The notes beneath the pieces were generated by a model. It was not told where the DNA came from. It worked only from the letters and a program-made list of their open reading frames with translations, and did not search any database. A program made the position numbers and the translations under genes. A stretch of 64,000 bases of DNA from Trichaptum fuscoviolaceum (taxonomy: Eukaryota > Basidiomycota > Agaricomycetes > Hymenochaetales > Trichaptaceae), in assembly GCA_910574455.1 (NCBI GenBank), contig CAJSYZ010000001.1, forward strand, positions 4,075,424-4,139,423. Direction: 5' to 3'. Below, piece after piece: positions 14,257 to 39,627 of this stretch. Numbering within the stretch: position 1 is the first letter of the stretch; each line of letters starts with the position of its first letter.

Positions 14257-14284
14257 CATCAGGGAAACTACTTTTTGCTTAAGG
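14257..14284. repeat. Left terminal inverted repeat of the giant element
   Basis: 28 bp beginning CATCAGGGAAAC and ending GCTTAAGG. It pairs with the right terminus (39599-39627) with about 24 matched positions and one 1-bp gap. The outermost 10 bp are identical. It is immediately preceded by TT, the proposed target duplication. Confidence 0.88.
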
Positions 14285-15099
14285 CGACTGACGCGTCCTG
14301 ACGCTGCCTTAAATGGACTGAAGGGTTGCTATGCCTGTCTGAAATCTACTGATATGTTGCTATGCCTGTCTGAAATCAACTGATGGCCTGAACACACTGA
14401 AATAAGCCAATTTTCAGGACACACTCAGTACGTCAGTACATCAGGAGGTCAGTCAAGCATAAGTAAAGACTAAGTACAAGCATGTACAATTCAAATGTCA
14501 TAGTAAGTACAAATCAGTACACCAGTAATTCAGTACGCCAGTATTGTAGGCTGCGCGCTGCTTTCCTCTCGCCTTCGCTGATAAGGATGTTTCATGCTTT
14601 TCGTTGTTGGCTGAGCGACTCAAGCACATTTGCCTTGTGCGCTTCGAGAATTGTCCGACTTCCGCCCAAGTGGCATATTCTTCCTGACGCCTGAAACAAT
14701 TGTCAAACATAAATTCCAGAGTTCTTACTACGGGTTTTCGGAGGACTCGGACATACTATTTTCAATCTGTTCCGAAAGCAATTTCTCTCTTGTCCGATTG
14801 CGCACGTTCTGATCATTTTCCCTCAAGGTCCATGTTCTTGAATTACCCTCCACCTTGAATGGTCCGCCGTAGCCGCTCGTGTCAATTCTCGTCACCGCAA
14901 CCTATCGATCTAGCTCTGCTTCTACACACCTTGAGAAGCAGATTGCCTCCGGTGGGAAGTGGGGGTAGATCTCGGTCTGGAAGTTGTTTGTTCAATAGGG
15001 AGTTTTGGTCTGACGCCAGAACGATCGGTATATATCGCAAGTGTTCATACTCCTGGTTTGTTCCTTCTGGATCATCCGAAAAGTGTTTGAGTAAGGCTT
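14285..15099. repeat. Left subterminal repeat region of the giant element
   Basis: Contains two direct copies of TTGCTATGCCTGTCTGAAATC (14326-14346 and 14357-14377, period 31 bp, each continuing as a near-identical ACTGA-ending tail). After them comes a stretch rich in CAGTAC, GTCAGT and AAGTAC words (14420-14540). Similar CTGAAATCAGT/ACTGA words lie inside the right end (39450-39600) in mirrored orientation. Subterminal repeats are the usual transposase-binding region in CACTA-like elements. The rest up to 15.1 kb shows no gene. Confidence 0.65.
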
Positions 15100-16740
15100 T
15101 ATACTGTAGCTCGAATGCACTTTAACAAGATGACTTACGGCCGTCAGCGAATCAACAAGTATCCCATCGATATGTAGGCAACACTCATTATCTGCAACTT
15201 CGCTCACGTCGTAAGGCTTCAGAATAAGCTCTGTGATACGCATCACTACACCTGTTCGGTCGTCCAGCGTATTGGCAAGCCGGATTTTCTGCTTCGCGAA
15301 TGCCTGGATCATCGAAAGTACGTTCTCGGTGGACAACTGGCTGATTTAGGAGGTGGTCGTGAACTTCCCTTGCCCAGCTCGCTCTCAACTCACATCGTCT
15401 TATTCATCAGCGACACAACTCACTTCGATACTGATTGACCAAGGACAGCACCACCGTAGTCCTAGATTTAAGAAAGTAAGACCACTACAGGCCGGAACAA
15501 ATGACTATTCGAGAAGAGCTCACTCGAGTGGTTGATCCATCCCCTCGCACGAACGTACCACAGATCAAGTTCACTGTACCTTTCGTAATACCGATACCGT
15601 ATCCGTGAGACAGAACTCTACCTTCACCATCGAGTCCTTGATGCCAACCAGACGGCACGACAGCGCAGCATGTCCGTTCCACACGACCTTGCTCGAGGTG
15701 AACTTGATAGCGTTGCCGACAATGTTCGTAATGACCTGGCGCAGATGCAGCGAGTCACCGATGAGCTGATCAGGAATGTCTGGGTAAACATCATATGTGA
15801 GGTCGAGGTTGTTTTGCGATGGTCGTACAACGAGAGTCTTGAGGTTACCGAAAACCGTGTGTCTCAGTGAATACCAAACTTGCTCTATCGTCATCCTGCC
15901 TGCTTCGAACGTAGTAATTAATCGAAATATTAGCAACTGAATTCGGAAGCATCGGCGGCGGATTAGCTTACTCTTCGAGATATCCAAAATATCGACATTA
16001 ATCAATAGCAGACTCCGAGCCAAACTATGCACCAGCAGAAGACTCTCGCGCTGACTCTTATTCAAATTGCTATCCAGCGTAAACTCTTTCATGCCAATGA
16101 TACCGTTCATAGGGGTCGAATCTCATGAGACGTGTTCGCCAAGAACTCCAACTTGGAGCGACTGGCAAGTTCGGCAGCTTCACGAGCGGCGGCGTTCTTC
16201 TAAATCGACTCGCGCAAGTAGTGCACAATTTAATTGATTTGATGAGTCTCAAAGGATTCCATCTCGCCTGAGCCTTTGACGGTGATGAAACACGTGAAGT
16301 CGCCGTTTATACTAGTAGCTGCAGTACTGATCTGCGCGAAACCACGCACTTCGGTCGTCAAGTTTCCGGCCATGGTGTCAACAGCCATTCTATTCGGAGT
16401 GCGTTCAGTAAAAACCACACTACACAATTCAGCGGAATGCTAGTGAAATAAACATACGTGATTTTTTGCTGTGACATGAACATTCTCGATTTCAGCTTGA
16501 ACACCGAGTTTTTTCGTTCTGACTTCCCGCGCGACTTTGGTCACCCCCGCAGTGAAGAGAGCCAACTGGTCAACCATGCCATTGATGGCCAAGTCCAGAA
16601 TATCACCCTGAACAGACACGCCCACGATCTCCTGCGTCAAGTCGCCACGAGCGACGGTCGTAGTCGCGACAACAATGGTACGCACTTGAAAGTTCACCTG
16701 CGTCAAAGAAAAGTGAGACAATTCTCTCCAAGACAAAAGC
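15100..16740 (-). pseudogene. Decayed group III (Nik1/Os-1-type) hybrid histidine kinase
   Basis: Group III kinases carry repeated HAMP domains and regulate the HOG stress pathway. On the minus strand, family blocks appear in correct order but in shifting frames. The last HAMP repeats come first (VNFQVRTIVVATTTVARGDL, INGMVDQLALFTAGVTKVAR, about 16740-16480). [16 protein letters not shown] follows (~16380). Next is the dimerisation/H-box region with NGIIGMKEF, LLLVHSLARSLLLI and ILDISK (~16110-15980), then the ATPase N-box (SLHLRQVITNIVGNAIKFT, ~15750). A frameshifted ADGSTTRE-like block (~15530) and part of a receiver-like segment (EVADNE, GILVDSLTAV, ~15200) come last. Several frame breaks, in-frame stops and the loss of G-boxes show it is non-functional. 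It lies inside the giant element, so it is probably a captured host gene copy. Confidence 0.82.
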
Positions 16741-17021
16741 GCAGCATAGGTTGTCGCCCATTTGCTGTACTAGTAGTCACAGTCTCGAGCTCCATCACCC
16801 CGCGAAGTTGTCCAGATCAATAATTGTCTAACACATTTAGCTTCGGTTAGATCTGTGTTGATATGATATGTTTGAAGAGCAAAGTATCCGAAATAGACGC
16901 ATGTGGTTTCGCTGATGAATAAACCAGTATAAGCCTAGTAATATAATAGCAAGAAGAGAAGTCCGTACTTATAGTTCCAGAGGCTTCAAAGGTTGCGCTT
17001 ATTCTCTTCCCTCGCATGCCC

Positions 17022-17660: not shown

Positions 17661-17894
17661 GTACTAAAGACAAATGTGAGTGATAAGATCAAGCAAGAAG
17701 CACGTTCTCAGACGTACACTATCGTTTTTTGGTTCATTCGGAAATGTTGAAGTCTAGGCGAGTTCAATACAAGCTTGAGGGTAGGATAAAACATAACTTG
17801 TTCAGGCCAATAAGTGGTCTTATGGAATGGGTGGGGGATGGCGGAGAAGTGCTCATAACAAGACTGGAGAACGTACACTGTGTCGTTGAGGGGA

Positions 17895-17985: not shown

Positions 17986-18243
17986 TTAGATTTAAAGCTC
18001 CACTGGAAGCATCATCATGGCAAGCAATCCGAACAGCAGACAGACACCATTGGCGACATCTTCCAAACCACTTTGATACCTCAGACTACGGTGATCATTC
18101 GGGAAAAAAAGGCAATTCAATAATAAATTTTAATCATGAATCTCCTGGCAACTTTGAAAGACAAGAGCATGCGCACAACAATTTACTCGATAACTCAAGC
18201 ACATTTGGTCAAACCTGCTACTGGTGGGCCTCAGCCTACTAGA

Positions 18244-19287
18244 TCAAGCCTCGAAGTTCTTGATGTACTTATCCGGTAAGGGTGAGTGGCTTTGGCTCAG
18301 GGCCAAAGCTACAGCAAACGTGCTGTGAACGTCAATAGCTGCATCTAGTATTCCAGTACAGCAGATCATGCAAGTGAGAACTTGAAGATGGTTGATCTTG
18401 AACAACAGAATGATAACTTACACTCTTTTTGTGCCGCTGATAGCTCGTCAGCTGCCCAGTCACTCATTGTGACCTCACTACTCTTCTTGACGTTCAGCCT
18501 CAATACTTCTCCCACTATTTTTTCGAGCTTGACAGTCGGAGTCGGATGCTGGAACCAGAGACGAGGGTTTAAGAGCAGTTGGGACCAGGTCGGGTTTTTG
18601 GGCCAGACTTCCGGGTAGACAACGCGTGCCCAATCTGTCAGATCGACACAGGAGCGCACAGAGGTGCGAAACTTGCGCTTTATACGCACTGCGTCACCTG
18701 CCATTTCTTCTGTTAGGCCACCTCGCAGGAGAAAAGATAAGTTATTCATACCGTTGATTCCTGCGGAAATTTTCATGACTGTACCATCCCCAAGGAGTTG
18801 CGCCAACGTAGGGGGAAGGTCAGTAAGAGTATGCGTCCTGACTAGATAAATGTGGTGTTGAACTGCGAGTTGGATGAGGTCCACGCGATGATTGGGCCCT
18901 TCTCCGCCACTTGCCCACTCGATGTCGATCGAGACAAATCTACTAGCTGGTACCTGTGGCAATGATGCATATATTGCAGTCACTGCATTGTCCACATCCA
19001 AGCCCGTGCGACACTGTATCGGAACTATATTATGGAGCCTATATTGATGTAATTCGGAGAGAGGTGTTGGTGGTGTACCCCGAGAAGATCAAGAAACGTT
19101 TGCAGTTTCTTGTGTATCTAGCAACAAGTCAGTGTACAGATCTTGATATGAATGAAACAAGTACCTTCGTTTGAGCCCTTGCTGTCCACCGTTGAACGAG
19201 CTGAAAGCGGAGGACGGTGCGGAGGTGCAGGCGTGCGTAATCAAGGGAGAGGAGGATGAGAAGGATAGTACGAAGATTTGAGAACAT
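18244..19287 (-). CDS. 3'-5' exonuclease domain (DEDD, WRN-like) protein
   Basis: RNase H-fold exonuclease domain as in WRN and RNase D. Exons on the minus strand: 19287-19165, 19013-18422, 18344-18244, giving 271 residues with all phases consistent. The N-terminus is hydrophobic (MFSNLRTILLILLSLDYARL), possibly a signal-anchor or a degenerate presequence. Motif I is intact (SIDIEWA, Asp and Glu ligands). Motif III is intact across the last join (DELSAAQKEYAAIDVHSTF, Tyr and Asp). The motif II region reads KISAGINGMNNLSFLL, where active relatives usually have Asp after GxxG, so a metal ligand may be missing. It lies inside the giant element and is intact in frame, unlike its neighbours to the left, so it may be functional cargo. 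The precise subfamily is not resolved. Confidence 0.8.
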
Positions 19288-21839
19288 GATTCACGGTGGA
19301 ATGGCTTGATGATGATCTTGGGGACAATACCCGCTCCCACTTCACACTTATACAAAGTAGTTGAAGTCAGTTTTCTGATTTCCCATTCTTCTAGAAAGAG
19401 AGAGGGAGCTATTAGTGCTTTGTACTATGACTCGGATAAACCGCAAGTTGAACTGATAGTAGGAGATGACAAATGATTTCTTCCGGATGACTTGATTATA
19501 AGGCTTCTTTTCATTTTAAGCACAAACGAACAAGAAAATGAGTCATGTTAACTCCGAAGAAGTCGGGAGGATACAACCCACTGCACAAAGAAGCTGCTCC
19601 ATCAGCTCTAGAAGGATTTCGAAGAAAGCCATGAGTAACTCACCATACAACAGTCATCCCTGTACACAACCCGAAACTTGAACTAGAACCGTGCCAAAAT
19701 GGGAAATGGGCCAACTTGAATGCATCCCAACCCGCTTCGGAAGGAGTAATTTGCATGAAGGCGCGTTTCTCGTCCTCGGAGCTGAGGGAATTGCGCTGTC
19801 GGCCGATGATGGACTCATACTGCACATTGAAACCGAGTGTTCTCCGTTTAGGCGGCAATGGTGGCGGGGCAGAGGTGTTTGGCAAGGAATGGGAACACGA
19901 CAAGTTGACAACAACTTGGATGATGTCGAAAATGCAGTTATATTTTTCCCTTTGCGGCATTTGCAAATTGAGTTGTGAGTCGCTTTGTCGACCTTTGTGC
20001 ATGCAAGCGGAATATTGGGATGCATCAAACTGCCCGGTGATACATAGCCCCGTATATACGAATCCGACCGCGCAACTTCGCAACCTTCCCTCTCCAGCAT
20101 CCTTCCCATGTTTTTGGGCTCTTTACGCCGCTCAGGCCAGGCGAACTTAGGATTAGATGTCGATTGAGCAGGGATCCCTGAAGTGAGAGTAGACGGTAGG
20201 GATAGAGACTCGTCCCGACTGACTGCTCAGCGCGAGTCCTGTGGCCGCTTATTGTTGAGCTTGAGATGGTCGAGGAAAAGAGGAACGATGGAACGAGAAG
20301 AAGCTGACGCGGCCATCGTTCCTTCCGGTGACAAGAAAGTCGGAGTCATACTGGAAAGTTGTCACTGATGAGTCGGGGATACAGGAATGTGAAGAAAATC
20401 ATACCCATTTGCAGATTCCATACGCGAACGGATGTGTCCAATCCCCCTACCCCCACCCCAAGAAAAGAAGACAATATAATTTTCGGCGTAAATCTTATGC
20501 AGATGTTCTCGGAGAACGTATAGACATTCCCCGTGCCGATGCTCCAAAGCTGAAGAAGCCCGTGAGTATTATGATTCAAAAATTAAAAGAACAACTTACT
20601 CGAGAAGTACAGTAGTAGCTTTCGCTCACTGATTACTGCACGCATACATCCTCTCCTCGTGCCTGTGAGGGCCGGTTCAGTAACTTGCCTCTTTGCACAT
20701 CCGAAACGTCGGTGATGCGTCTCGCAATTCAAAACCTGAGAGGAGCGGACCTCGGATGCAAGTGCAGCAACCAGTTTTAATGTCCTGCTCTCTGAGCTGG
20801 TCATCAGCCACCACTGACGATGAGCTCTCTGGCATAGCCCTGTCCCTCGGAGAAGGTTCACTCATGATATATGGTTACGGATGTAACCACTCTACCATCA
20901 CAAATCGCTGAAGAAGTTTGTGTTGTCAACTGTGGAGGTGGACGCGTGCGCATGTGTGCTCGCCATTGCTTTAGTCGGTGGGGGGATACGCGTCGGCATA
21001 AATCTGCGAGAGAATCCTGGGTCAAGAATTGGGGCGCCTGCTGTGGGCGCAGTAAATTGCGTAGACGGCAGTGGTTTCGTTCCTCTGCAAAAGCGGTTGA
21101 ACTCCTACCCCCTTGGTTTCCATACGAGCCTAGAGCGGCGCACGAGTAGAAACGCGTCGACCCACAGGGAGCTAACAAAGTAAGGCGCAGACGTTTTACG
21201 CGAGCTGCGCGAGGCGTTGAAACCGATAGAACAATTTGAGCGTGCCGAGACAGGCAAAGCGCGAGTCGGCAGATGCGCGGCGGAAGAAAGAGGTCTATCA
21301 GAGTTGTACAAGGTCCCGCATGGTGTTGGGAGAGAATCGGGACGTGCAGGAGGAATTCGATGTTGAAAATTGGTAGAAAAGTGAAGAAGAGAATCTGCGG
21401 TGACTTGGGCGTTGGGATACAGTGGTAGTTGAGGAGGAGGCCATGACTACGTCAGTTCGCTACTGAAAAGTCACTTGAGGCCATCAACGATATTATAGAG
21501 CTTACTCTCTTGGATGATTGGTTAAAGTGTGTCTGTAAGGTGGTTCCTGCCCTAGGCTGCCAGTGCCAGTGTGTAAGATGATCCCGTGTCAACTCAACTG
21601 TACATCCTACGGCAGCGGCTGTTCCTTTTTCCGATAATTGCGTAGGATGCGATCAATAGTGGAGGGTGCGGGCCAAGATGTAATCCTGGAGAGCAGAACG
21701 TAGTGTTAAACAGAAAATACACCAGGACGTAAGACAACCTGAGGAAGTTCTCTGTTAACGAGCCTGGTTGTATGGCATGGTGACTACGGCCAGTGTTGAG
21801 CATCTTCAATGTCCACCAAGTACTATGCCTGTGGTAGCA
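19288..21839. other. Element-internal region with unassigned coding fragments
   Basis: About 2.5 kb without a nameable gene. A minus-strand stretch at 19640-19900 reads like real protein (TLGFNVQYESIIGRQRNSLS, then GWDAFKLAHFPFWHGSSSSF) and may be the last exon of an unknown or broken gene. A plus-strand stretch at about 20920-21180 (LAIALVGGGIRVGINL, then GSRIGAPAVGAVNCVDGSGF) also has protein-like content. Neither could be extended by plausible splicing. The remainder shows no structure I can interpret. Confidence 0.4.
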
Positions 21840-22452: not shown

Positions 22453-25400
22453 CTAGGACAAGGGCGTCAAAGATTTGAGTCGAGATACGCCTTCGCCGGT
22501 AATCCGAAACTCAAATGGCTCTTTGTAATGAGGATTGGAAGGATTCACAAATCCTTCCTTGGAACTAGGAGGCTTCCGTGTTTGCTCACGCACTTCCTTT
22601 GCCCAGTCCATGCGCAGAGCCAAATAAGACTGAGGTGCCCGACCATAAGGGCCATGGTTCCCCACTATCTTGCATATCCTTTTAAGCACGTCCTGCTGTT
22701 CATAGGTAAAGAGTGGTTCCCCCGCTGTCAGGTGCAGTACGGATGGTGCGTTTTCTATGAATTTGAAGAGAGATTCGTCGTCACCATAATAATGTCGGTC
22801 GTGGATAAGTTTATTCAAATGTTGCCTGAGTGGAGTCTCGTTCATCACCTCAAAAACGACATGTTCAGAAGACGTAATCATCTGCATCGCGTTGGAAAGG
22901 ATAACAGCTTTCTCCCTGTGCGTATTTCGCCGCTTCTCCAGATGCAGGATCTTCGATAATTTTTTTCGGTCTTCGTCATTTTCCGGCCACTTTCGCACTG
23001 GCACCGGGACTTCCGTGAGATTCGCCTGCTTGACAACTTCCGCTAGTGTGTTCAAGGATAATTGGTCGAAAGAAGCTGAGACTTCCTCAAAACTGCGCTG
23101 TATATCAGCTGGGAGAGCTTTTGGAGGAAAACCTTTGGCCGACGCATGGGGTATGTCCTCAGAGCCATAGTATTCGATGTCGCCCTCTTCGGCCATCTTT
23201 GCAAAGAATTCCTCGAAATAGAACTTAGGCAGGTCCTTCAGATCGAGGACACCCTCTTCTGATGGATCAAGATTTGGGAACGGTTTGCACGTAAAGTCAT
23301 CTATGCTGGCATCCCATGTGGACTCCTGCTCGTCGAGTGTGGTGGCTGGCTGTTGTGAATCCAACTTCTTCAGCTTGCGATTGAGGATGACATACAACCT
23401 TCGATGGAATTCGAAGATAAGATAGAAGCGCACAAGAAAGAAACGGAACTTTTCGATGGATTTTGCGTCAGGCGACGGCTGCCAGGAGTTTGTGAAGGGG
23501 TATTTGGATTTAAGCTCTGCTCTCGCGCCCTCTACCAAGCTCTGCAGCTTCTTTTCGGTTTCCCTCAGCGTCTTCACGGCCCGGCCCCTCTTTTCCTCAC
23601 TACACTTTGGGTCCTTTGTCGTCTCCTCTGCTTTCTTTTTCGCCTTAACCGCGTCCTTGTATGTCGTATCCTCCTCGCGGAAGTCTGCTAACTTGTCTTC
23701 AATCCCTGCTAACCACTCTTCGTAGCGTGCTTCCTCTGAGGATATGAGGCTTTGAGGTAAAGCGGTGAGCAGGTCATCAAACAGATGCCTTGCAATGGGA
23801 ACCTTTCCGTCCCGGCGCATGGTTGGTTGGGCAGTGAACTCAGCGTAAAGCTCGTTTACACCTCTGATGAGCCCCGCTGTCTTGACACCGCCATCACCAG
23901 TAATGTCAAAAGGGGCAACCGATTCGATCTTGAATTTGTTTGGGAAAACAATGGCAAAAGCCATATAAAGAATGTTCCTGGCGTCCTCGAAGACGTGTCG
24001 TAGTTTAATACTACAAGCTGCCGCTTCGCTCTATGTGAGAACTCATGAGTTTAATTTGTTTTGCAATAGCTTTCAAGATGACTTACCGATTCAGCTGCTA
24101 CGGCAATGATTTGAAGCTCGCATATCATGACAGCGAACGATGCTATAGTCCGCGTCAAAAGGTCGTCTTTGGAGCGGTCCGCCTTCCGTTCAGCATCCAA
24201 TGTCTGGTCCGCCTTCCGTTCAGCATCCAATGTCTCCAAACGAGCCAGCTTTTCGTTCATTTGATGCACCTTGTCGGTGGTGCTTTGAATCATATCAAAT
24301 TGACTGTCAAGCCTTTTGCTAACATTAGCTGCCATGACGGAGTGTAGCGCATGGATGCCCTCCTCAGCTGCAGCCCTCGCAAGCATCGGGTAATTCAGGG
24401 TTGCCTGGTCCTTTATATGTTGTATCTCGTTGGAGAGAGAATCGACTTTCTCCTCCAAGGTCTTTATTGTCTCCGAGTAATCCGTGTTCTCCGATTTGGC
24501 CGCCTTTTTTTTCGTGGCTTTCAGATCTTCCCTTTTTTTCTCAAGATCTTGAGATCCAACATTCCGCATCGCCCGATCCAGCCGTTCATCCACTTTCTTT
24601 TTTTCATCAGGATTCGCCGCCCGAGCTGCCGCTCCATGCTTGAGTTTTGTTATCACCTGGTTGAGAACTTTGGCAGTCTCGACCAGCTTTCCTCCAATGT
24701 CCGTCCATTCCTTGCCCGCTTTGTCCAAGTCGCCCCCTATCCCATTGAGCATGGTGACTGACAAGTCGCTAGTTGGGTATAGGAAAGAGATAAGAAGCAA
24801 TCTACACAGACTGGCAATGTCACTCACAGGTTCGTTTTCAAGTCTTCGACACTGTTTGACGGCTTGGAGTCCACGTCCGACCCAGGTTTTGCCACCCCAC
24901 TGCCAGTGGCACCGGCACTGGCGGCCTCGCTGACAGTAGAATGGAATGTCATCAAGATGCAATTAAGCTCAGGCTGGCAACACTACTCACAATTCCAAAT
25001 TGGATGTGTCTGGTTCCGCCTCAGTGGCAGACGTCAAATTGCCACTGCCAACTCCTAGTCCGACCTCAAACTCCGATTGTGACCTCAACCCGGGCCCTGC
25101 ACTTGCAAGAGACTCCGAGTCGGACATGGAGACGCCGGGCCCATTCACTGGCAGGCTGTCAAGAGAATGTCCTGGTCACATACTTTGAAGGCTGGCAACA
25201 TGAATGACACTTACTTGATTGCTGATTTGCCACTGTCATCTCGCTGTGCCATCTGATTGAAAATTTCAATTGCTTTCACCATGTCTGACCACGTCTTTAT
25301 AAGCCACGAATAGGCTCCATCTTCGCCAACAAGAACTAGTCCTGTTTGGACTTTTTGTGAAAGAATTGAAATTACTACTAATACTAGTTTTTGAGACATG

Positions 25401-25558
25401 TACTACATACCAGCTAGTCTGGCTTTCTCTGGATCCAGCAGCATTGTGATTTTGATTGGCTTGGGAGGCTGAGGCTGAGTGCCAGTGGCTTGCTGGCCCG
25501 GGATGCCAGTGTTAACAGGTAGCACTGGCATGTTAGCGTGAGGGACAACAAGAGACAT
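22453..25558 (-). CDS. Orphan gene 1: large helical protein of unknown function (933 aa)
   Basis: Six exons on the minus strand with GT-AG borders and matching phases throughout: 25558-25411, 25341-25215, 25155-24991, 24929-24828, 24768-24087, 24030-22453. Residues 1-~55 are Pro/Gln-rich (VLPVNTGIPGQQATGTQPQP). Residues ~90-180 are low-complexity Ser/Gly/Glu (ASAGATGSGVAKPGSDVDSK). From ~180 to ~410 is long charged helix and coiled coil (LDKAGKEWTDIGGKLVETAK; LEKKREDLKATKKKAAKSEN), including a tandem TLDAERKAD repeat. The ~520-residue C-terminal part is mixed and globular-looking with no motif I know (IRGVNELYAEFTAQ; EYYGSEDIPHASAKGFPP; HDRHYYGDDESLFKFIENAP). No signal peptide or clear membrane span. 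The open frame over six exons argues for recent selection. Lies inside the giant element between islands A and B. Confidence 0.8.
24880..25170. repeat. Palindromic words inside exons 3-4 of orphan gene 1
   Basis: TGCCAGTGGCACCGGCACTGGC (start 24901), GAGACTCCGAGTCGGAC (25109-25125) and CACTGGCAGGCTG (about 25146) lie within coding exons and the intron between them. They are translated as Ala/Gly/Ser/Asp-rich low-complexity protein. This shows that island words extend into coding sequence without breaking frame. Confidence 0.65.
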
Positions 25559-26477: not shown

Positions 26478-26479
26478 TA

Positions 26480-27492: not shown

Positions 27493-29318
27493 ATGTCAAG
27501 TTCTGATCTCGGGGATACTCCAAGCTCTTGCTTGGACACAGACGAGGACGAGGACGGTTCAGAATCCAGCTTTGGTCTCAACACTCACAGCTCAAAGTCC
27601 GCGATCATCGAAGACGAGAGCGAATACGAAGTGTATACAAATCCTGTAGAGGTTAAGTTCGGTAGGACCACATATTATCTATATTTCAGTGTGTGGTTTG
27701 GCTTATCTTCAATGACTTGTCAGAGGACCTACCCTTTGGTTATCGCTCGGGAGCATATATCGATAGCACGGTGGTCCAGTCAATCACCAAAAGCTTAGAG
27801 TCCAAGCTAGAGCATGCAAATCGCTTCGGGTTTTCGTCGAACGATTTCAAGGAAACACTTGTTCTGGCTGATCGGCTGGGGAGGTACTTTGATACGTCAA
27901 ATCAGTATATCAGTAACCGGGTTAGGGAAGCACAGGCTCTGCAGAGGAAGACGGCTGTGATGCTAGACCAGTTTCGGATCAGTACATACCAGTACACGGA
28001 CATGATCTTCAAGCTAGGTGAAGAACTAGCTATCCTGATGCGTTATACGGTAAGCTGCAAATTAAATCAAAAGCTTGAATGCACGTCTCTAACCGCTTGT
28101 TCTTATGGTAATGCGCTATAGCCCGAGGAGCCACTTGAGCTGCTTATCCGCAAGCGTGTGGAGGAATCAAGACTTGCTGTCGCCACGGCGTTCATATCTG
28201 TTCTTCCCGGCTTTTTCCCGTCAGGGAAACTCATCAATGTTTTCACTGGGGACGTCATCTGGGATAATTTCTTGTCTTGCTTAGTCGCCCGATATCATTC
28301 ACACCATGCAATCGTGCGTTGGCAACGTAAATTTGAGGATGAGGAGGCCGGCAATCGATTGATACAGACAAAATCTGTCTTTTCTGCCATAAGGATCGAC
28401 ATCAAAGGCACAAAGCTCGAGGAAAATGTTCGTCGTGAACTCTCTGCTCAATTGAAGCACTTTTACGCCAGTCGTGGGCGTGAATCTTAAAGGCTCTACA
28501 AGCAGGCCCCGAAACCCAAGGCTTGCGCTCAAGTTCTTTCTCCCCCTACTTATTTGGTCATATAACGAGTGCAAGGATTGGATCGTCTTCCTAGACAAAT
28601 GCCGTGCGGAACAATTGCCAAAGTCGCCCGTTGGTCAACTCTCAGAAGCAGAAGTCAATTGTTCTGCGACTCAGGCGACTCCGACTGTCTTTCAATCCGG
28701 AACAGCACGAGAGGCTCGGCGTCGATGGAAACGTGAACTTGAACGTGCCGGTGGAGAAGCTGCTCTAGCTGACTTTCATCGACTCATTCAGAAGTCAATG
28801 GATATTCTTGGCGTCGACTCGGCTGATGGTGGAACGTCCTCATTGGAGAATAATCGACAAATCCAGCGCGAATACGGAAATTATTCGGTTGTTCTGCGCA
28901 GGTTCAACTGGATCAGGAAATGTTTAATCATCCTCTGTGATGATTCGCTTCGGATCTGTTGCTCATGAATGATGGTGCAATGCAGCGCTTCTCCAGGGAG
29001 ATGGACTTTGCTAGGCTGGGCATTATCGAAGTGACTCGAGCCATTAGGCAATTTGACGATGCTGATCGCAAAGATATAGACAAGGAAAGACTCGACAGGG
29101 CCGCCGAATTTCTCCACGAAGATATGGAACACATCGATCATGCCCTTATTCCGGCAGAGCAAATTTTTGACTCTTTACTCCTGAAGACAGTCGACGATTT
29201 ACTTCGTAATTATGGTCCATTTTATTTAACAGATTATGGAATCCTATTTGCTCTTCTCGACAAATTGGATCCCATCACGGACACCGACTCGGATGTCAAT
29301 ATGAGCTCGGCGATGTAA
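27493..29318 (+). CDS. Orphan gene 2: helix-rich protein of unknown function, frame breaks in the 3' half
   Basis: Exons 27493-27651, 27690-28049 and 28122-~28470 read cleanly. An acidic Ser-rich N-terminus (LDTDEDEDGSESSFGLN) precedes a helical region (VVQSITKSLESKLEHANRFG, then ALQRKTAVMLDQF) and a hydrophobic stretch (VATAFISVLPGFFPSGKLIN) that might be a membrane-inserting hairpin. After about 28470 the protein-like frame jumps (28500-28950: RLALKFFLPLLIWSYNECKD, REARRRWKRELERAGGEAAL). It jumps again at about 28960-29318 (FSREMDFARLGIIEVTRAIR ... DTDSDVNMSSAM, stop). No acceptable introns explain both jumps, so the 3' half is either frameshifted (decaying) or mis-modelled. No family is recognised. 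It sits inside the giant element between islands C and D. Confidence 0.6.
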
Positions 29319-30094: not shown

Positions 30095-33000
30095 TTATTG
30101 TTGCCTACTTTCGTACAATGTTTCATGCATGTGCATGTCAGCAAATCGGTTAACATAGAATCTATTGTAAAAGTCCAGGGACTCCTCAGGTGTCAATGAC
30201 TTCGGAGGACATTCATCACCCTCTGGAACCCCAAGGAGGTGAGCTAAACGGAAGATACTCCCTAGAGCTATCACGGATAACTTTGGAGTTTTTGAGTCAC
30301 CGTGACGGGGGTAGCCTGACTCCGAGTCGGAGGTGTCATTCAGGTCACTCCGGCGAGTCCGAGTCAGCGGTTGACGGCAACTTCCAATAGTACTACGCTG
30401 GCACGCGGTAGAGGTCTCTGACTCATACTCTGGCTCGACTATCCACATTCTTGTTTTTCTGTCAGGTGAGTCTCCAACGTTCTTGAAAAACTGGACAAGG
30501 GCGCATTCCTGACGTTCTCCATTGGCGGTGAAGGAGAAAAGAAGCATAACCCGAGCAATTCGCATCCCTGCAAACCCCTTTTTGCGAGAACTAACTTGGA
30601 CAAGAACGACATCACGTCGTGGTTTTCCGCGCCAAGAGGGATTGGACCTGATCACCTCCCTCATTGCTTGCTCTATAGGAATTGATTCGCCGCGGTAGGC
30701 GAAATACGCGGTAGCTGAATGGAAGATGGCAATGTCATTGCCCATGTCCAGTGCAAACTGTTGTTCGGCTATCAGGCTTTCAGAAGCGCTTCCGAGGTCA
30801 TAGTATCCTAATTCGTTCAAGTTGCACCTTTCGTACTTGCAGAATAAGTATATTTTGATGAGTCGTCGGAGCTGTCGGAGTTCCGGATGGCCTTTTATCG
30901 CCGCAAGAGCGTTGAGCTGTTTGGGGTACAGCTTACTGGACTCTGTAAGGATAGCAACGAATAAGTCAGATATCCAGCGCCACAATTTGAAGCTCGTGTT
31001 ACTGACGTTGTTTCGAAGCCATTAACATCAAGCTCGAAGGATCACTTCTACCACCTAAGCAAAACCGATGTTCTGTATTTTCCACATCATGAAGAACAAC
31101 ACTACTTTGCAGTCCTTCCACTGATGAAGTGCTGAAATCATCCAGGTCAGCAATTTCGTTGTGCCCTTGATTACCCACAGTGCCATCGAAGAAATCATCT
31201 GTATCATTGGCTGCTCCTGCCACACCAATACACTGCAACTGCTCCCTCTGATTCGGGATCCTCTCAGCATCATCCTCCTCCGGCTCTGACATATTCTTCC
31301 GCAGAACATCTCGCAAAACTTTCCACGTAGCCTCGGATAGCGTATCGTCTAGCATTCCACGCCGTTTGAAGTCTGACCTCGATGCAATAAGTTTGCTGAG
31401 TCGTTGGTTTGCTGTGATCATCTGGCCCAAGGGATCATTTCTGTTCGAGCGTCGCCACGTTTCTTTGACCGCATAAATATGTTTATTCTCTGTAATCGAT
31501 GAACACAGCCCGCTCGGTGCAGCAAACAGAGGGATCAATGTTGGATAATGGACCATAGCATGCTGTCGTGGTAGTGAAAAGTTATCCCGGATGCCCTTAG
31601 CTATGAATATTTGCCGATAACGGTGAAAGTGATCCAAAGAGGCTTTGATTTGATCAAGAGTTGAGGCTGTAATCGTGTACCGACGCACAAGGTAACAGAA
31701 GTCTAGAAATGCACTTAATGTGCGAATCATATCATCGTGTGCAATGCCCACGATAGCCGGAAGATACACCTAAGCAAATTGCATCAAATATCAGCAAACC
31801 ACTGCCTCGAACAAGATAAAAAGGTCACATACTTTCATAAGTGCCTTAGAATCATTGCCTGTCCATTGCTTGAAGCCTCGGCCTTCGGGGAATCTGCGAA
31901 GTCCAGGAAAAGGAGCAGCAACTCTGATTCTACGCGGATGTTAGCAATGGTATTTACATTAAACAACTTGCGAAAAAAATCACCTTTTATCCACAATATC
32001 CAGCTCTGACGTGGTCAAGCTCTGACATATCCACTCGACAAGATGATCCTTGAACACGCCTTTGATGATTTGGTGCAGCAGGTCCGGAGATATGAGATCG
32101 CATATATCTGCGCGTGGAATGTCATTGGTGAAAGGCTACGGAGCAACGTATCAGTTGCAATATACGCATCCAATGAATAATTTGAAGCACGTACCACAAT
32201 GTCCTGGTGGAATCCGTACTCTTTCCGAATTGTTGCTTTATTCATGTTGTTGGCGTCTACCTGTTCTATCAATCGTTCGTGCAGCTCTTTTGTTCGAGGA
32301 ATTGATACAAATTCCGGATTATCGAGGTCCTTGTGAGGCGCTGTGCATCTATAATGTCGAAAGTAAGTCATCACCACAGAGCTTGATTTCAGGAAAGCCT
32401 GAGGGCGGTAGTACTTACTTGCAGCACCATCCAGTACATATGGCGCAAAGGCTGACCTGTTCCGGATAATCGGCTATATATGAGCCGAGTCCGAAAACCG
32501 ACCTACGCAAGTGACCATCAGGGCACCGGAGAATGGTTTTCTGAGTGTTCATGATCATTGCGGATTTCAGCGAGATTAAGATCCTCGATATAGACGAATG
32601 AAAGATCTGATGTCGAAAGTGCCGGAAGTCATCTGACTTTTCGTATTGCCGCTCAGCTGCAAAGCATCAGAAGTCAATTGAATAGATCACTATTAACACA
32701 TACTCTTTGGTATTGCCAGAAATGCTATGAGCTGGACTGTATTCAGTTTCTGGGACCGCCGGGCCTTGTTTGATACATTCCCAATCGAGAGATACAAAGG
32801 ATAGTATTCATTATTGCCAGTTCCAACAGAAACCGTTGTCTTATCGCTCCCTAAAATGACCGGGACGAACATAGATCCATGGACTGCTTTATCTTCTGCG
32901 TAGATCTTGTTCTAAGTCAAGGATAATAAGTATCTGTGCGAGTTAATGAGTCATGACTTACAGCCTGTTCCCAAGCAAAATTCCCGGACATGTAATTTCT

Positions 33001-34174
33001 GAAAACTCGTTCTTTGTCATTGATATTATTGGTGTCCTCCTTTGTCTGAAATTCACGAAACGGGACAAAGTCAAATTCGCCTTCTAAAGCCGGGTTATCC
33101 ACCAAATTTCGGATTACTTCCAAAGGATCCCGATACCATACATCATATTCTTTCCTCTTCCATGACTCGATGTTCTCGTTTGTCGCTTTTTGGCCATTGT
33201 CGTTAGTGTAGAAGTTACTGAAGGATTTCCAAGATACATCACCGACTTTTGTAGTGTCAATGATCTTGTACAAATTTTGTGCATCTCCATCGAGCAGTGC
33301 ACCAGCTGTATCCAGACTTGAGTCATCATTGGGATCTGTCGCGTCCAATTCGGGATATCTAATAGATTTTGCGTTCTCCGTGGACTGAATTAGTTGATAA
33401 GCCTTCATAATTCCGAGAAGCTTTGTTATGTTGCCAGCAGACATTTGCTCTTCGCGATAGAGAAAATCTGCGAGCTCGAAATCTGCTCGGCACGAATAGG
33501 GAAACCAGTCATTTGACGCAGGTTCGTTCCGTGAAACGGGCGGTTCTTCCTTTTCTAAGAAGTTCCCTTCTTCATCGCATGGAGTGGCTGCACGATATTT
33601 GGTGTCAGAATGCTAAAGTAAACTGGGGACATCATACTTAGCGCGCACCATTTAAATATCTGTGATACACCTTTAAGTTATCATTGTTCTCTTCATAATC
33701 TCCAATGTCGGAGTCCAGATCAGCAGAAGATAGGTCTTGGTCTTCAAGTTCGTCATCTCCAGTGTCAGCATGGGACAGGCAATCAGGACCGTCTAAATCT
33801 TGAAGCAGCTCGTCTCGGCCTATGCTAAGCATCGAGATATCCTGTGTGAGTATAGAAATGTCGTAGTCGTAACTTGAAGAGTTGCAGCCACTTTCATCTT
33901 CATGATGGCCCTCCAAGTCTGTTGGAAGTTCAGGAGAGCCGGGAAGAGCTTGAGGTGTCGAAGGTCGTGCGGGTCGCTTGGGTGAGGAATCCAAGTCGTA
34001 ACCACAAGCAGCAGGTCTTGTTGCAAATGATGACGGGTGAGCTGAATATTCATGTCTTGTCCTTGCGGATTGATTCTTGAACCTCCTGCTGCAGAAGGAG
34101 AAGGTGCATCGAATAGTCGGGGGGAAGATATCTGTAAGATGAACGGGTTTGGGCCTTCGCCGAGTTACCGGCAT
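30095..34174 (-). CDS. Plavaka-type transposase (CMC superfamily) with N-terminal C2H2 finger
   Basis: Minus-strand exons with matched phases: 34174-33649, 33587-32962, 32911-32704, 32656-32419, 32348-32195, 32135-31984, 31929-31833, 31769-~31000. A C-terminal open segment follows (30985-30095). The N-terminus holds one C2H2 finger (CTFSFCSRRFKNQSARTRHE). Then come acidic sequence and conserved Plavaka blocks: WYRDPLEVIRNLVDNPALEG, MSGNFAWEQA, VPVILGSDKTTVSVGTGNNE, PFTNDIPRADICDLISPDLL with HQIIKGVFKDHLVEW, RRFPEGRGFKQWTGNDSKAL, DFCYLVRRYTI, FSLPRQHAMVHY and GLCSSITENKHI. The tail has RSNPSWRGKPRRDVVLVQV and FYVNRFADMHMHETL. About 1,200 residues in total. The join near 31000 needs a frameshift or an unusual intron, so activity is uncertain. 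It is the only transposase seen in the giant element. Confidence 0.9.
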
Positions 34175-34224
34175 TAGTTCCAGTAAATTGAACGCTGAAT
34201 TTAAAGTTGAATGGCACGCTCAGC

Positions 34225-34651: not shown

Positions 34652-37600
34652 ATGTCAACTCGAAGACAAACGCGGGCTAAGAATAGCAATCAGCACCCGG
34701 GAGCCATAGTCAATAAACTCAGAACACGTCGAACGAAAGAGGAGGTATTGAGGGAGAAAGAAGAGAAGGAGAGAAGGAGAGAAGAGCAGGCCTCAAAGCG
34801 TGGTGAGGCATTGAGGGAAAAGGAGGAGAAGGAAAAACAGAAGGAAGAACGGGCAGCTCTGCGCGAAGCTGCGGCTCAACAAGCCGCGGATGCGAGAGAG
34901 AAGAGAAAACTTGATGCGGAACAGAAACGGGCAGCAAAAGAACAAGAGGCATCTGAGAAGGTACGCAAAAAGAGAGCTGCAGCAGAGCAACAGGAAACAG
35001 CAATACTGGAGACGATGGAGCTTGAGAAGAATTTGTCGAAGGCTCTTGACATTTGCACCCAGATGGGCTCAACTGCACCTAAGCTGGCTGGCACTGACAA
35101 ACGAGGGCTAAAAAAACCGAAAGACACTCCTGAAGCTAGTGAGTCCTTATCTTCAAGACAGCGACAGTCGAGTTACCAGATATTGGCATTGCAGGTTCAA
35201 CGAACGAGGAAAAAGACAGCTTTTGTGAAGCTGAAGGCAATGCAAACTTTTATGTTCGTAAGTTGCATTACCTTTACGACTTTAGGTTTTGAAAGATGAA
35301 CATATTGACTCACGTTATGATGCAGCCAATTCCGATGGACCAGATAGAGAGCGCGCAAAAAAGGCGAGGAAAAAGGACACCAGAGGTGCACTTCCTTTCC
35401 GTACTTGTGTGCAGGGCGCAAAGGCTTCAAGTCGTATCATAGGAGGCACTGGCTATCATAGTACGCTTGCAGGACAGGACAGCAGTCTTTCTGGTGAGGA
35501 TACAGACATGATAGACTCGCCCAATACGTCGAAACGGAACGATAAGACAAAGCGACCTGTCAGGGCACTTCGCAACACAGATGGATCCACTTTCTTCGGC
35601 GGAGAGGGCAGAAATCCTGAGATCGCAAGGAAGATAGTAGAAGATATTGACTTGTGAGTTTGAAGTCGTACTACTCAACCGTTCGCATCATAGTACGAAA
35701 GATGAGTTTCAAATTCAAACAAATTCAAGTTGATAGTAAGTGTGAAGCTTGATTTAAACTCAGCTACTTGAAGCTTATCATTGTAGTACTACTTACTACT
35801 ACTACTAGTAGTACTAGTACTGATAGCTTGAATGCGCCCGCCACTGCCAGTGGCAGTTTGAGCGTGCCACGCGTGCGCCAGTGACACTGCCAGTGGCAGC
35901 GACCGTGGCGGCCCGGCGGGTCACCGCCGTGCCACACTTCTTCAAGATCACATGAACCCGAACGTTGCAGCTTCTTCACTTATAATGCTCACATCCTTAT
36001 CTTTGTTTCAAGTTGTGAGCCTGGCTGACACAAGGAAAATTTAGGCTCCCCGCCTCGGTGCAAGAGGATGCAAACTTTAGTCCTTGGGAGGATGAAGGAG
36101 AGACAGTAACCCTCACGAGTTTTCAAGGTGTAAAGAATAGCTTTGCGAGCGAGCGACAGACGGCACATCTTGTTGACTCCGACACTGATAATGTGAGTTG
36201 GTTAAAGCATTCATTAGACTGGCAGATGAAATCTTAATATTTTGATTGTGCGTTTAATTAGGACGCGAGGAGACTTACAATACCGCCCCAAGCCAATGTG
36301 AGTGCCGCTTAAAGTTCAAAGAAATCGTTCGATTCACAGAGACTATGCATCGGTGGAGTCCCATGCACAACGATGGCTAATTAACAATGTTTCTGTATCG
36401 TATCAGGATGGAGCCAGCAATAAATCGAAGAAAAGGAAGCTATCCCGCGACACTCTCTCCGACTTGCAGGCTCCTACAACGTTGGTAAGTGGCATCATAA
36501 TGTCTTGCTTCGTTCGCGCTACTTATCCTTCCTTCTTTGTGCTCTGGAGAAGAAGAATATCAGGAGACAATCGGCCGTTCAGGTGAGTGTTTCACATCAA
36601 AGCATGGATCTGGTGCCGGACTTTCTTGTGTCCTTCGGCGTCGACATATCTTTACTTCATTACTTACCAAACCGTACTCTGAATAGGGCGCGAAAATGCA
36701 GAGAATCGCCAACTCCCAGCTTGATGTAACGGTAAGTTTATTCTGCTTTTACCCCCTCACTACTCACCTGTCATCTCGTCAGGAGGGTATTACTGTCGAT
36801 GGACATAGAGAGCAATCGCCGGCGTTGTATCTGCAGATGCAGGTATGTGTAGGCATCGACACTCAATAGGACAACTTTCTGCACCCCTTTCTTTGGCAAG
36901 GATCTGGTCGTCTACTAAGCTTTGCTTATTGTAGGACAGCATGATCGCGAATAATAAGAAGAGGAAGTCACCGCCGGACTCTAACTCGCATGCCGTGGTA
37001 ATTCTTGCATTTCCACCCAATATTCAGATCACTTCCTTACTATCTAAAACAGACTAGCATGAACGTGTATATGAAGAAGCCGTCATCACAGGCTGCCTCG
37101 ACAGTTAGTGTTAATCCTTCTAATCTCCATTTCATATCATTTCTGATTAAGCAACAAGGATTTGAACCTCACTACTAGTAACAAGAGTAAACTGCAAGAC
37201 AGTCATTCTCAGGCTGATATACTGGTATTCAATTCTCTTCGAGCTTTTCTTGGTAACAATTCCTCTAATTGCTACAGATGAAATCTTCTACTTCTATTCG
37301 CAATTTGAAGAGGTCTCTGGCGGCTCATGCGCAACATATTGCAAGTGTGAGCTAATTGCTGCAATTGATTCGTGTACTAATTCAAGGCTCCTTTAACAGG
37401 CAAGTGGTTGTGAGGTGTCGCTAACACCACGAGCACAATCACCTGCGATGACGACAGTATCCATCAGTCCTGAACCCGAAGTGCTCGCAACCAAGGCTCA
37501 TCTTGGTCATCGCAAAGTCTCTCGGACTACTAGCTCTGTGCGTTAATCAAATCATGTCTATGATATACATCCACTAACTTGCAGAAATGCAGACATCTGT

Positions 37601-39196
37601 AGGGCTTGAGGACAAGGATAGAAATAGTATCGGAAGGGAGGGATCCCGCGCTCCCGGCAAAAAAAGGGCAACGAATCAGTGTCTCCCTCCCGGAACTCAG
37701 GCAGGCTGGACTCACATTCTTCTGCCTTCGCTGTATCGCGCAGTTGGAAAGTCCACAACTCCATGGCAAAACCCGGACAATAAGTCCATCGGAGCCTTGT
37801 GGGGGAAGGTGTTTGATTCTGTCGAACTTAGTTACGACACGCAATTGGCCGACATCTGTTCTTTAGTTGAGTCATCCCTTATTGTCTTTCATCGGCCATT
37901 TTGAATCAAGTATGATCTGCCCTGTAGGCAGCCCAGAGATGCTCTGATAGTTGGCGCAAGAAATTGTTCGAGAAAGCCGAACAATCAATTTCGAGTTTCG
38001 TCGGCAACGAGCGTTCTAAGTCGGTGGAGACCGAAGAAATTGTGAAGATGTTGCAGACAATGGTCGACAAGAAGAAAGCTGAACCATTCCTCTGGGAAAG
38101 CTGGCATAGTATGGATAAGGTATGTAAAAATTTGCCCCATGTCACCCTTCGTATCCCTGCATTGACTCTGAAAGTACAGAAGCAAGGGTTGTTCTGCTCT
38201 GATCTTGTAATCTCAGTGTTGTCCGTACACCTAGTCTTGGCCCTGGGTCGGCATAAAGTACTGGATAAAAACACAATAGGAAAGCCTATCGGTGCCCTCG
38301 CTCTTGCGGCAACCGCGGTATCTATCTACTTCAGTTCTTATAGTGGCTTTATTCGCTGAATTTCTCATGAACAGGTCAAGGTTGCAATCGACAAGCAAGT
38401 GGCCCGGTTGCAAAAGATCAAAGAAGAGTTTGGTGGCGCTGAGTGGTACTTCACCAGTGCTCTGTGGCAGCCTCATACGGACGACTATGTTAACTTATTG
38501 TCGAATTCCTCGTTTTTTACTGAATCAAACTGGGAGAAGGTCCGATCCCGCCTAGCAGCTTACAATTCCATTGAAGATTTTAGTGCGGGAAAGAACACCG
38601 AACTTGTTGGATCGGGTGTCACTGGCAGGGATTTCTCCCTGTATCTTGACGTTGGAGACGCGGATGCGAGCGGCGAGTATACATATGGCGAGGGCGCTAC
38701 TAGAAGTAGTAAGTGCAAGGAGGATAAGGATAATGACGGCGAAGAAGTCGAGGATTTCAAGGATAGGGAAGACGATATGGAGGACGAGAGTGTGGCTTGG
38801 CGAGGGAGACGAGGTCGAGGACAAGGATCAGGAGGAGGACAAGGATCAGGATCAGGATGAGAACAAGGATGCGGACGAGAATTTCAGCGTGGGTTATGGA
38901 CGCAGTGGAGGTTTTGAGGGCGAGGAGAATGACGCAGGCAGAGAGGACTGGGAAGGTGAGGGCGATCGCGAGGAGGACGAGGGTTCATTATGGGATTCGG
39001 CTACGGACGGCGCAGACTTTTAAGAGCAGGTCGATCTCTGGTGAGCTTCGGCTTTGACCCATCACCCCGCCACTGTATTCAAGCTCTTACTACCATCAAC
39101 TTGCAGTGGCATTCGTTCTCTGAATATGCCGAGGAACAGCCTGCCAGCGAGGCAGAAGTGGCAAAATACAATCTGGTTCAGGATGCCGTGGTGTAG
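34652..39196 (+). CDS. DUF6532-like protein with coiled-coil N-terminus, many small exons
   Basis: Starts MSTRRQTRAKNSN, followed by ~120 residues of Lys/Glu/Arg/Ala-rich coiled coil (34740-35030). Then come an Asp/Ser-rich part (35289-35654) and a chain of very short exons with clear GT-AG sites (36045-36192, then about ten exons of 20-120 bp to 37530, many ending in basic KKRK motifs). The folded C-terminal domain spans ~37595-38580 (AGWTHILLPSLYRAVGKSTT, then IGALWGKVFDSV, GLFCSDLVISVLSVHLVLAL, GKPIGALALAATA, EFGGAEWYFTSALWQPHTDD). It resembles DUF6532, a family of unknown function found in Agaricomycetes; this assignment is from memory. An acidic Gly/Asp tail follows, with an apparent 1-bp frame change near 38790. 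The last exon is ~39107-39196. It ends ~400 bp from the element's right TIR. Confidence 0.65.
35690..35935. repeat. Palindromic-word island F inside an intron
   Basis: Sits in the 390-bp intron (35655-36044) of the DUF6532-like gene, far longer than the other introns of that gene (about 40-80 bp). Words: TTACTACTACTACTAGTAGT (35790 on), CGCCACTGCCAGTGGCAGTTTG (35839 on) and CACTGCCAGTGGCAGCG (35885 on). It looks like an island inserted into, or grown within, a normal short intron. Confidence 0.75.
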
Positions 39197-39598
39197 CTAC
39201 TGAGGGACCGTGACACTGATGCACTGATTTCTACTTATTGTCTTAAATTACTTGTGGAAATGAAGTAATTCTGGAACCTCTTACGCACTTACACGCTTGA
39301 GTACTGCAAACCGACAGACAAAAAAGTCTGCTTATATGATTAAATGATGAATTACTTATGGAATGAACTACTTGAACCCCTTACAAACTTATACACTTGA
39401 GCACTGCAATTCGAATGCCAGAAAAAAACTTCTGATATGCTTGAATGCTGAAGACTGAATGCCTGAAGTACTGATTTAAGTCGACGGCACTGATTTCAGC
39501 AGGCCCCTTCCTGAATAATGAAACCACATGCCTGAAATCAGTAAATCAGTAGAATTTCACTTCCCAGGGCTTCAGTAAATTTCAGACCGTTTAAGTAA
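39197..39598. repeat. Right subterminal repeat region of the giant element
   Basis: Holds a diverged ~100-bp direct repeat: 39254-39350 and 39357-39445 share TGGAA(A)TGAA, CTTACxxACTTAxAC, CTTGAGxACTGCAAxxCGA and a run of A. It is followed by CTGAAATCAG/CTGATTTCAG words (39470-39560), mirror images of the CTGAAATC words inside the left terminus. No gene is seen. Confidence 0.65.
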
Positions 39599-39627
39599 CC
39601 TTAAGTGAAAAAGAAGATTCCCTGATG
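39599..39627. repeat. Right terminal inverted repeat of the giant element
   Basis: 29 bp ending AGATTCCCTGATG. Its reverse complement begins CATCAGGGAATCTTC and matches the left TIR at 24 positions with one 1-bp gap. It is directly followed by TT (39628-39629), mirroring the TT before the left TIR. Confidence 0.88.

What the first reader, a model, noticed from the sequence alone, without database searches (positions are those of the whole stretch)
14257..39627. 25.4-kb giant transposon splits a host AlkB-GRF gene, with TIRs, TT flanks and an exactly restorable frame
AlkB coding sequence stops at 14256 right after the HxD motif and resumes at 39630 with the LGPYPTIASLSLG motif, same strand and phase. 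The intervening 25,371 bp begins CATCAGGGAA and ends with its complement TTCCCTGATG; inverted repeats extend 28/29 bp. TT lies on both sides, and removing the insert plus one TT leaves one open gene with normal introns. Family knowledge says these two AlkB parts are adjacent in one domain. Few cargo-carrying DDE-type elements of this size are described in basidiomycetes, as far as I know, and the clean host halves suggest recent movement.
Basis: partly seen in the sequence, partly recalled or inferred. Interest (0 to 1): 0.96.

Follow-up and report, generated by a model that had tools for sequence, protein, structure and literature searches.

The report
Giant multi-gene PlavakaB transposon family
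In this fungus a 25,371-base transposon sits inside a predicted DNA-repair (AlkB-like) gene and splits it in two; it is one of an estimated 300 long relatives that by estimate span roughly one seventh of the genome, and it was likely placed there by its own cut-and-paste transposase.

Summary
Confirmed. Window 14257-39627 is a 25,371-bp insertion with imperfect 28/29-bp terminal inverted repeats and a 2-bp TT duplication, inside an AlkB gene. Joining the flanks gives a 549-aa protein; 117 of 120 listed homologues run gap-free through the junction. The element encodes a full Plavaka transposase (PF18759, E=2.6e-114); its CATCA..TGATG ends and 2-bp duplication fit published PlavakaB (PMC12730594). 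It is no one-off: the 20-base terminus occurs 593 times in the 59-Mb genome (control 0); paired ends span 16.5% of contig 1. Three sister copies differ by 0.24-0.28% in substitutions; 26 of 28 examined pairs show a 2-bp duplication. Four subfamilies share three core genes (transposase, coiled-coil protein, weakly DUF6532-like protein; dN/dS 0.17-0.32) and carry differing sets of exonuclease, helical and protease-like genes. An exonuclease block shared by two subfamilies is far younger (dS 0.06) than their transposases (0.45-0.58), so modules were likely exchanged. Unlike Starships, the mobilising enzyme found is DDE-type. New, as far as searched: the giant multi-gene form, its abundance and mosaicism. 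Transposition chemistry and accessory-gene roles are inferred.

The parts
14257..39627 (.). Giant PlavakaB-type transposon, 25,371 bp
14255..14256 (.). Left copy of the 2-bp target duplication TT
39628..39629 (.). Right copy of the 2-bp target duplication TT
14257..14284 (+). Left terminal inverted repeat (28 bp)
39599..39627 (-). Right terminal inverted repeat (29 bp, imperfect)
13266..13972 (+). Host AlkB exon 1
14028..14256 (+). Host AlkB exon 2, left part, ending at the insertion
39630..39672 (+). Host AlkB exon 2, right part
39726..39817 (+). Host AlkB exon 3
39871..40449 (+). Host AlkB last exon, with the GRF-like C-terminus (GRF named from recall and from names of homologues; no Pfam GRF hit)
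15571..16122 (-). Histidine-kinase-like fragment, below the Pfam cut-offs
18033..21289 (.). Block shared with subfamily D at 92.5% DNA identity (module exchange)
18244..18997 (-). WRN/RNase-D-like 3'-5' exonuclease (gene model)
22453..24952 (-). 794-aa helical accessory protein 'FFL' (gene model)
25248..25453 (.). Divergent, conversion-like tract private to this copy
27493..29318 (+). Second helical protein 'core2' (gene model; frame broken by indels relative to sister copies)
30095..34174 (-). Plavaka DDE-type transposase, spliced 1192 aa
34652..35657 (+). Coiled-coil core protein (gene model)
37587..39023 (+). Acidic core protein, weakly DUF6532-like (E=0.05, below cut-off; gene model)

Best explanation
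This is a 25,371-bp PlavakaB-type (CACTA/CMC-like) DNA transposon that has inserted into and split a predicted AlkB gene, of which no second copy was found, and it was likely placed there by its own cut-and-paste DDE-type transposase. It belongs to an abundant giant-element family (593 exact ends, an estimated 300 elements). All four subfamilies compared keep three core genes at one end (acidic DUF6532-like protein, coiled-coil protein, transposase) and fill the rest with differing sets of accessory genes (WRN-like exonuclease, helical proteins, protease-like protein). Inferred mechanism: the transposase binds the CATCAGGGAA ends, excises the element and joins it to a 2-bp staggered cut, giving the 2-bp duplication; copies multiply by moving from replicated to unreplicated DNA or by gap repair. 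The subfamilies likely trade modules by recombination. Shown: ends, duplications, copy number, near-identity of copies, coding constraint, module discordance. Not shown: transposition itself, catalytic residues, roles of the accessory proteins, and the AlkB locus in other strains.
For: Frame and homologues across the junction. AlkB search of the genome: 3 matches, all the window's own exons. Three sister 25.3-kb copies on C1 and C2, each with its own 2-bp duplication (TA, AA, AT), 0.24-0.28% from this one in substitutions; two of them 0.03% apart. 26 of 28 pairs examined show a 2-bp duplication: 7 of 7 whole elements, 19 of 20 further pairs (mispaired control mean 2.9, maximum 9 in 2000 shuffles) and 0 of 1 short 3.0-kb pair. 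593 ends, control 0. On C1, 66 ends form 31 convergent neighbour pairs, median 27.0 kb, 16.5% of the contig; scaled to 593 ends about 13.9% of the genome. Transposase PF18759 E=2.6e-114 over profile positions 4-325 of 325. 148 transposase-exon matches (148 of 390 candidates scored), 143 without a stop, 29 (the window's included) identical over all 256 residues. dN/dS: transposase exons 0.20-0.28, coil 0.25-0.32, DUF6532-like exon 0.17. Module map. Module exchange: exonuclease A-D dS 0.06 against transposase A-D 0.45-0.58; the rest of the shared block is as alike as the exonuclease gene (95.5% against 96.0%). Published PlavakaB ends and 2-3-bp duplications match (PMC12730594 section 3.2.2 read).
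Against: 1 of 20 pairs and the one 3.0-kb pair lack a duplication. Only 28 of the 41 pairs were examined, 25 of them on contig 1. The genome share is extrapolated from contig 1 and its spans include nested insertions. Counting gaps, sister copies are 99.3% identical to this one; many gaps are single bases, and they shift frames in some copies. Gene models come from a home-made splicing script, which gave differing or early-ending transposase models in sister copies. The exonuclease lacks the acid expected at motif II. Core2 in this copy has indels. Structure models of two accessory proteins failed (pLDDT 41.5 and 27.4). No same-species empty site was found or searchable.
Confidence: 0.9

Rival explanations
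1. An ordinary small Plavaka element enlarged only by nested insertions of other transposons, so that its size and 'accessory genes' are incidental.
For: Nested insertions are real: C1:4652916 is C1:2554063 plus a Gypsy retroelement and a duplicated gene; the FFL gene is split by about 13 and 8 kb in C1:3738221 and C1:4752480.
Against: Four 25.3-kb copies share one structure throughout. Lengths recur (about 20.0, 23.6 and 25.3 kb). Core and accessory genes are shared between subfamilies at about 27-97% protein identity, with dN/dS of 0.17-0.57 for those tested.
Confidence: 0.06
2. Assembly chimera: the two AlkB halves are not adjacent to this element in the real chromosome.
For: Only the assembly was available; no reads could be examined.
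Against: A perfect 2-bp duplication with an exactly restorable frame at both junctions, and the same signature at 25 other examined pairs, would not arise by misjoining.
Confidence: 0.02
3. A Starship-like giant element mobilised by a tyrosine recombinase, with the Plavaka transposase as a passenger.
For: Size, multi-gene content and module turnover resemble Starships.
Against: Ends and duplications are those published for PlavakaB; the transposase is among the three genes kept in all four subfamilies compared. No DUF3435 match in the genome, but the control genomes gave none either, so that search is uninformative.
Confidence: 0.02

Closest known systems
PlavakaB DNA transposons of Agaricomycetes (Kojima 2025, PMC12730594; passages and section 3.2.2 seen)
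   Same: Termini 5'-CATCA..TGATG-3', 2-bp target duplication, Plavaka transposase with CxxC and HxxxH motifs.
   Different: About 20-25 kb with three core and several accessory genes here; no TET/JBP gene in this element. The passages I read give no element lengths, and the supplements were not available.
Plavaka elements of Marasmius oreades (PMC8290104 and PMC9674265; passages seen)
   Same: Plavaka defined by PF18759, a major DNA-transposon group of a mushroom genome.
   Different: [quoted passage not shown] here this one family spans an estimated 14%.
EnSpm/CACTA elements of the red alga Chondrus crispus (16-20 kb, 4-5 ORFs; cited in PMC6431247, passage seen)
   Same: Enlarged CMC-type cut-and-paste elements with several ORFs.
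   Different: Different lineage; hundreds of copies and exchanged modules are the new part here.
Starships (Pezizomycotina; eight also reported in Tremella fuciformis, PMC13066641, passages seen)
   Same: Giant, multi-gene, modular fungal mobile elements.
   Different: Starships are organised around a tyrosine-recombinase captain; here the conserved enzyme is a DDE-type transposase, with TIRs and 2-bp duplications.
Terminons of rotifers (PMC6431247, passage seen)
   Same: Giant elements that also carry a DEDDy 3'-exonuclease and putative coiled-coil proteins.
   Different: Terminons are retroelements; the likeness is by analogy only.

Membership tests
PlavakaB | Plavaka transposase domain (PF18759) | tested here: met
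   E=2.6e-114, profile positions 4-325 of 325 on the spliced protein
PlavakaB | Termini CATCA..TGATG | tested here: met
   published rule read
PlavakaB | 2- or 3-bp target duplication | tested here: met
   TT at this copy; 26 of 28 pairs examined carry a 2-bp duplication
[quoted passage not shown]
   WCCKC and QHAMVH occur in that order before SITENKH, but the catalytic D, D and E were not aligned to the published figure
PlavakaB | Placement in the PlavakaB clade of a transposase tree | not tested
   reference sequences are in a supplement that was not available; the 120 best of 1406 matches are Plavaka proteins at 37-50% identity
TET+ PlavakaB | TET/JBP dioxygenase gene within the element | tested here: not met
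   3 Tet_JBP matches in the genome, on C3, C8 and C9, none in the window
Starship | DUF3435 tyrosine-recombinase captain | tested here: inconclusive
   0 matches, but the control genomes gave none either; no such hit among the element ORFs scanned, which were not all ORFs
Starship | Mobilisation by that captain rather than by a TIR-bound DDE transposase | not testable with these tools
AlkB host gene | 2OG-Fe(II) oxygenase domain continuous across the insertion point | tested here: met
   PF13532 over residues 191-424, junction between 312 and 313

The most novel reading that the evidence does not exclude
Basidiomycetes have their own answer to Starships: giant, mosaic, cut-and-paste transposons that keep several co-selected genes of their own (coiled-coil, acidic, helical and exonuclease proteins) to overcome the size penalty of DDE transposition, swap modules between subfamilies, and have lately filled about a seventh of a genome.
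Probability: 0.4. Interest if true: 0.8.

Novelty: new variant of a known kind. Interest (0 to 1): 0.62.

Why it matters
The efficiency of DNA transposition is held to drop above about 6 kb of cargo (PMC6431247, passage seen), yet here 20-25-kb elements with a DDE-type transposase exist in an estimated 300 copies, many nearly identical, with several genes under coding constraint. That makes it testable whether accessory proteins let a DDE transposon move long DNA, and offers a basidiomycete counterpart to compare with Starship gene turnover. The AlkB insertion is a clean marker of recent activity in a gene-rich region and a natural disruption of a predicted DNA-repair gene.

Tried and rejected
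Rejected: chance inverted decamer (control 0); a second AlkB copy; TET-carrying Plavaka; large size as proof of varied host cargo (size excess is at least partly nested insertions).

Led nowhere: structure models of the 525-aa FFL exon (pLDDT 41.5) and of the GDSG protease-like protein (27.4), so no fold search was made; profile comparison of FFL and core2 (probability 0.2%); Pfam on the 651-, 404-, 439- and 251-aa accessory proteins (no hit over a cut-off); transposase against solved structures (one hit, E=0.52); DUF3435 search (controls silent); Rfam (0 hits). The FFL search found two unnamed homologues, 99% and 84% identical (residues 268-794 as query, 7996 candidates scored). The host species was not identified: AlkB's best three hits are Sanghuangporus, Coniferiporia and Phellinidium at 53-58%; that these are Hymenochaetaceae is recalled.

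Literature: nine answered searches (two searches returned no paper, one search was a term error). None of the listings shows a giant multi-gene Plavaka; the library holds open-licence papers only. Iyer et al. 2014 was not read (recalled, and cited in the papers seen).
Full report
WHAT IS THERE. The window lies at C1:4075424-4139423 of a 59.1-Mb, 12-contig genome. Bases 14257-39627 (25,371 bp) interrupt an AlkB gene between residues 312 and 313 of 549. Exons 13266-13972, 14028-14256 | insert | 39630-39672, 39726-39817, 39871-40449 join to a 549-aa protein with GT-AG introns of 53-55 bp. It matches PF13532 (E=3.7e-26, residues 191-424) and 276 homologues, best Sanghuangporus baumii at 58% identity and 100% coverage. 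Of the 120 listed, 117 align without a gap 10 residues either side of the junction. The genome search with the middle of this protein gave 3 matches, all the window's own exons. As it stands, the broken frame ends 14 codons into the element.

ENDS AND TARGET SITE. The ends are CATCAGGGAA... with imperfect 28/29-bp inverted repeats and TT on both sides. The 20-base terminus CATCAGGGAAWCTWCYTTYT occurs 593 times, exact, against 0 for the reversed pattern. In the first 100 decamer hits, 37 convergent neighbour pairs lie within 45 kb against 14.3 expected when strands are shuffled, maximum 24 in 2000. I examined the flanks of 28 of the 41 pairs, 25 on C1 and 3 on C2: 7 of 7 whole elements, 19 of 20 further pairs (mispaired control mean 2.9, maximum 9 in 2000) and 0 of 1 for a 3.0-kb pair have a 2-bp duplication, of varied sequence. 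On C1, 66 ends form 31 convergent neighbour pairs, median 27.0 kb, together 914,476 of 5,547,787 bp (16.5%), with 4 same-strand neighbours; scaling by ends gives about 13.9% of the genome. These spans include nested insertions, so they are upper estimates of the elements' own DNA.

AGE. Three sister copies (C1:4909960, C1:2427531, C2:453274; 25,336-25,345 bp) differ from this one by 60-70 substitutions in 25.3 kb (0.24-0.28%); two of them differ by 7 (0.03%). Counting gaps the identity is 99.3%; many gaps are single bases, which may be real or assembly errors. Of 35 substitutions private to the window copy, 26 lie in a sharply bounded tract at 25248-25453, which looks like conversion from a diverged relative.

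GENES. A codon-score splicing script gave the models; one transposase stretch was re-spliced by reading the frames of this and a related copy. The transposase (30095-34174, minus strand, 1192 aa) covers PF18759 positions 4-325 of 325 at E=2.6e-114. The script's models for the sister copies differ in places and one ends early. PF18759 gave 165 genomic matches (123 of 834 candidates scored). One transposase exon gave 148 matches (148 of 390 candidates scored), 143 without a stop and 29, the window's included, identical. Accessory genes: a WRN/RNase-D-like exonuclease (PF01612, E=1.2e-10; 153 matches, 150 of 356 candidates scored), whose DxE and YxxxD motifs align to WRN while the residue after the GIEG-like motif is not D (that this D is catalytic is recalled); a 794-aa helical protein, FFL (83 matches, 82 of 220 candidates scored, 41 of them over all 525 residues of the exon at 97-100%; two unnamed homologues elsewhere); a second helical protein, core2; a coiled-coil protein (150 matches, 150 of 380 candidates scored); an acidic protein weakly like DUF6532 (E=0.05, below cut-off); a histidine-kinase-like fragment below cut-off. 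All counts of repeats are lower bounds.

SUBFAMILIES AND MODULES. Four elements were compared, one per subfamily: A (window), B (C1:760444, 20,619 bp), C (C1:2554063, 23,676 bp) and D (C1:4354277, 20,037 bp). Transposase, coiled-coil and DUF6532-like genes are in all four; the exonuclease is in A, B and D and was not found in C; FFL and core2 are in A and C; another helical protein is in B and D; a GDSG-motif, protease-like protein is in B and C; the histidine-kinase-like fragment was found in A only. DNA comparison shows mosaics even within the core. The coil/DUF6532 arm groups A with C (86.0% over 5.2 kb), and B with D (85.1% over 9.8 kb, transposase included). The transposase block of C is nearest to B (84.6%), then D (81.9%) and A (81.3%). 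A and D are 69-80% alike in the core, yet share a 3.3-kb exonuclease block at 92.5%. In that block the exonuclease gene (96.0%, gaps left out) is no more alike than the rest (95.5%). Between A and D the synonymous divergence is 0.06 for the exonuclease and 0.45-0.58 for transposase exons; between A and C it is 0.20 for the coil and 0.53 for a transposase exon. So blocks have moved between lineages after others diverged; recombination is the likely route. dN/dS is 0.20-0.28 for transposase exons, 0.25-0.32 for the coil, 0.17 for a DUF6532-like exon, 0.43 for the exonuclease, 0.45 for core2 and 0.57 for the B/D helical protein (in the last dS is 1.4, near saturation). FFL and the protease-like protein were not tested.

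WHAT MAKES ELEMENTS LONGER. C1:4652916 (34.8 kb) is C1:2554063 plus a Gypsy retroelement and a duplicated protease-like gene. In C1:3738221 and C1:4752480 the FFL gene is split by about 13 and 8 kb. Base lengths thus appear to be about 20-25 kb; pairs of 11.6, 17.2 and 18.5 kb also exist and were not fetched whole.

COMPARISON. Kojima 2025 (PMC12730594; passages and section 3.2.2 read) describes PlavakaB by CATCA..TGATG ends and 2-3-bp duplications, within a CMCT clade whose members mostly end in CA..TG and make 2-5-bp duplications. This element meets those tests; tree placement was not tested. It has no TET/JBP gene. The 120 best of 1406 transposase matches are 37-50% identical proteins of other fungi; none of the 120 is from the three genera nearest by AlkB. 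[quoted passage not shown] The giant-transposon review PMC6431247 (passages) names 16-20-kb EnSpm elements in Chondrus and a loss of efficiency above 6 kb; KDZ and basidiomycete do not occur in it. My nine answered literature searches list no giant multi-gene Plavaka; they cover open-licence papers only.

VERDICT. Observation confirmed, interpretation supported and extended. The kind (PlavakaB) is known; a giant, multi-gene, mosaic form at an estimated 300 copies is new as far as my searches reach. Transposition chemistry, accessory-protein roles and strain polymorphism remain untested.

Noticed in passing
window 25248-25453: Sharply bounded divergent tract in the window copy holding 26 of its 35 private substitutions, next to a 45-bp insertion: looks like gene conversion from a diverged element.
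   Followed up: partly
G000:C1:18273-21298 and C2:120551-123580: Two roughly 3.03-kb pairs of the same termini, perhaps non-autonomous derivatives; the first lacks a matching 2-bp duplication, the second was not examined.
   Followed up: partly
G000:C1:4652916-4687726: A 34.8-kb copy enlarged by a nested Gypsy retroelement and a duplicated protease-like gene.
   Followed up: partly
L076:1309-3945 (subfamily B) and C1:2554063 element bases 18598-20550 (subfamily C): Accessory proteins of 879 and 651 aa, 27-32% alike, share a GDSG motif like that of trypsin-type serine proteases (likeness recalled); no Pfam match for the 651-aa one, and the structure model failed.
   Followed up: partly
window 18244-18997: The exonuclease keeps motifs I and III of WRN but not the acid at motif II, in subfamilies A and D and apparently B; it may be inactive or differently built.
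   Followed up: partly
G000:C3:5436268, C8:4246, C9:1760512: Three Tet_JBP matches of identical score and length, one close to a contig end; none lies in the window.
   Followed up: no
window 5302-6357, 42298-45072, 48354-49424, 51849-53072, 55778-56521: The flanks are gene-rich: SUKH/KNR4, SOG2, PP2A B56, HSP70 and citrate synthase domains.
   Followed up: no
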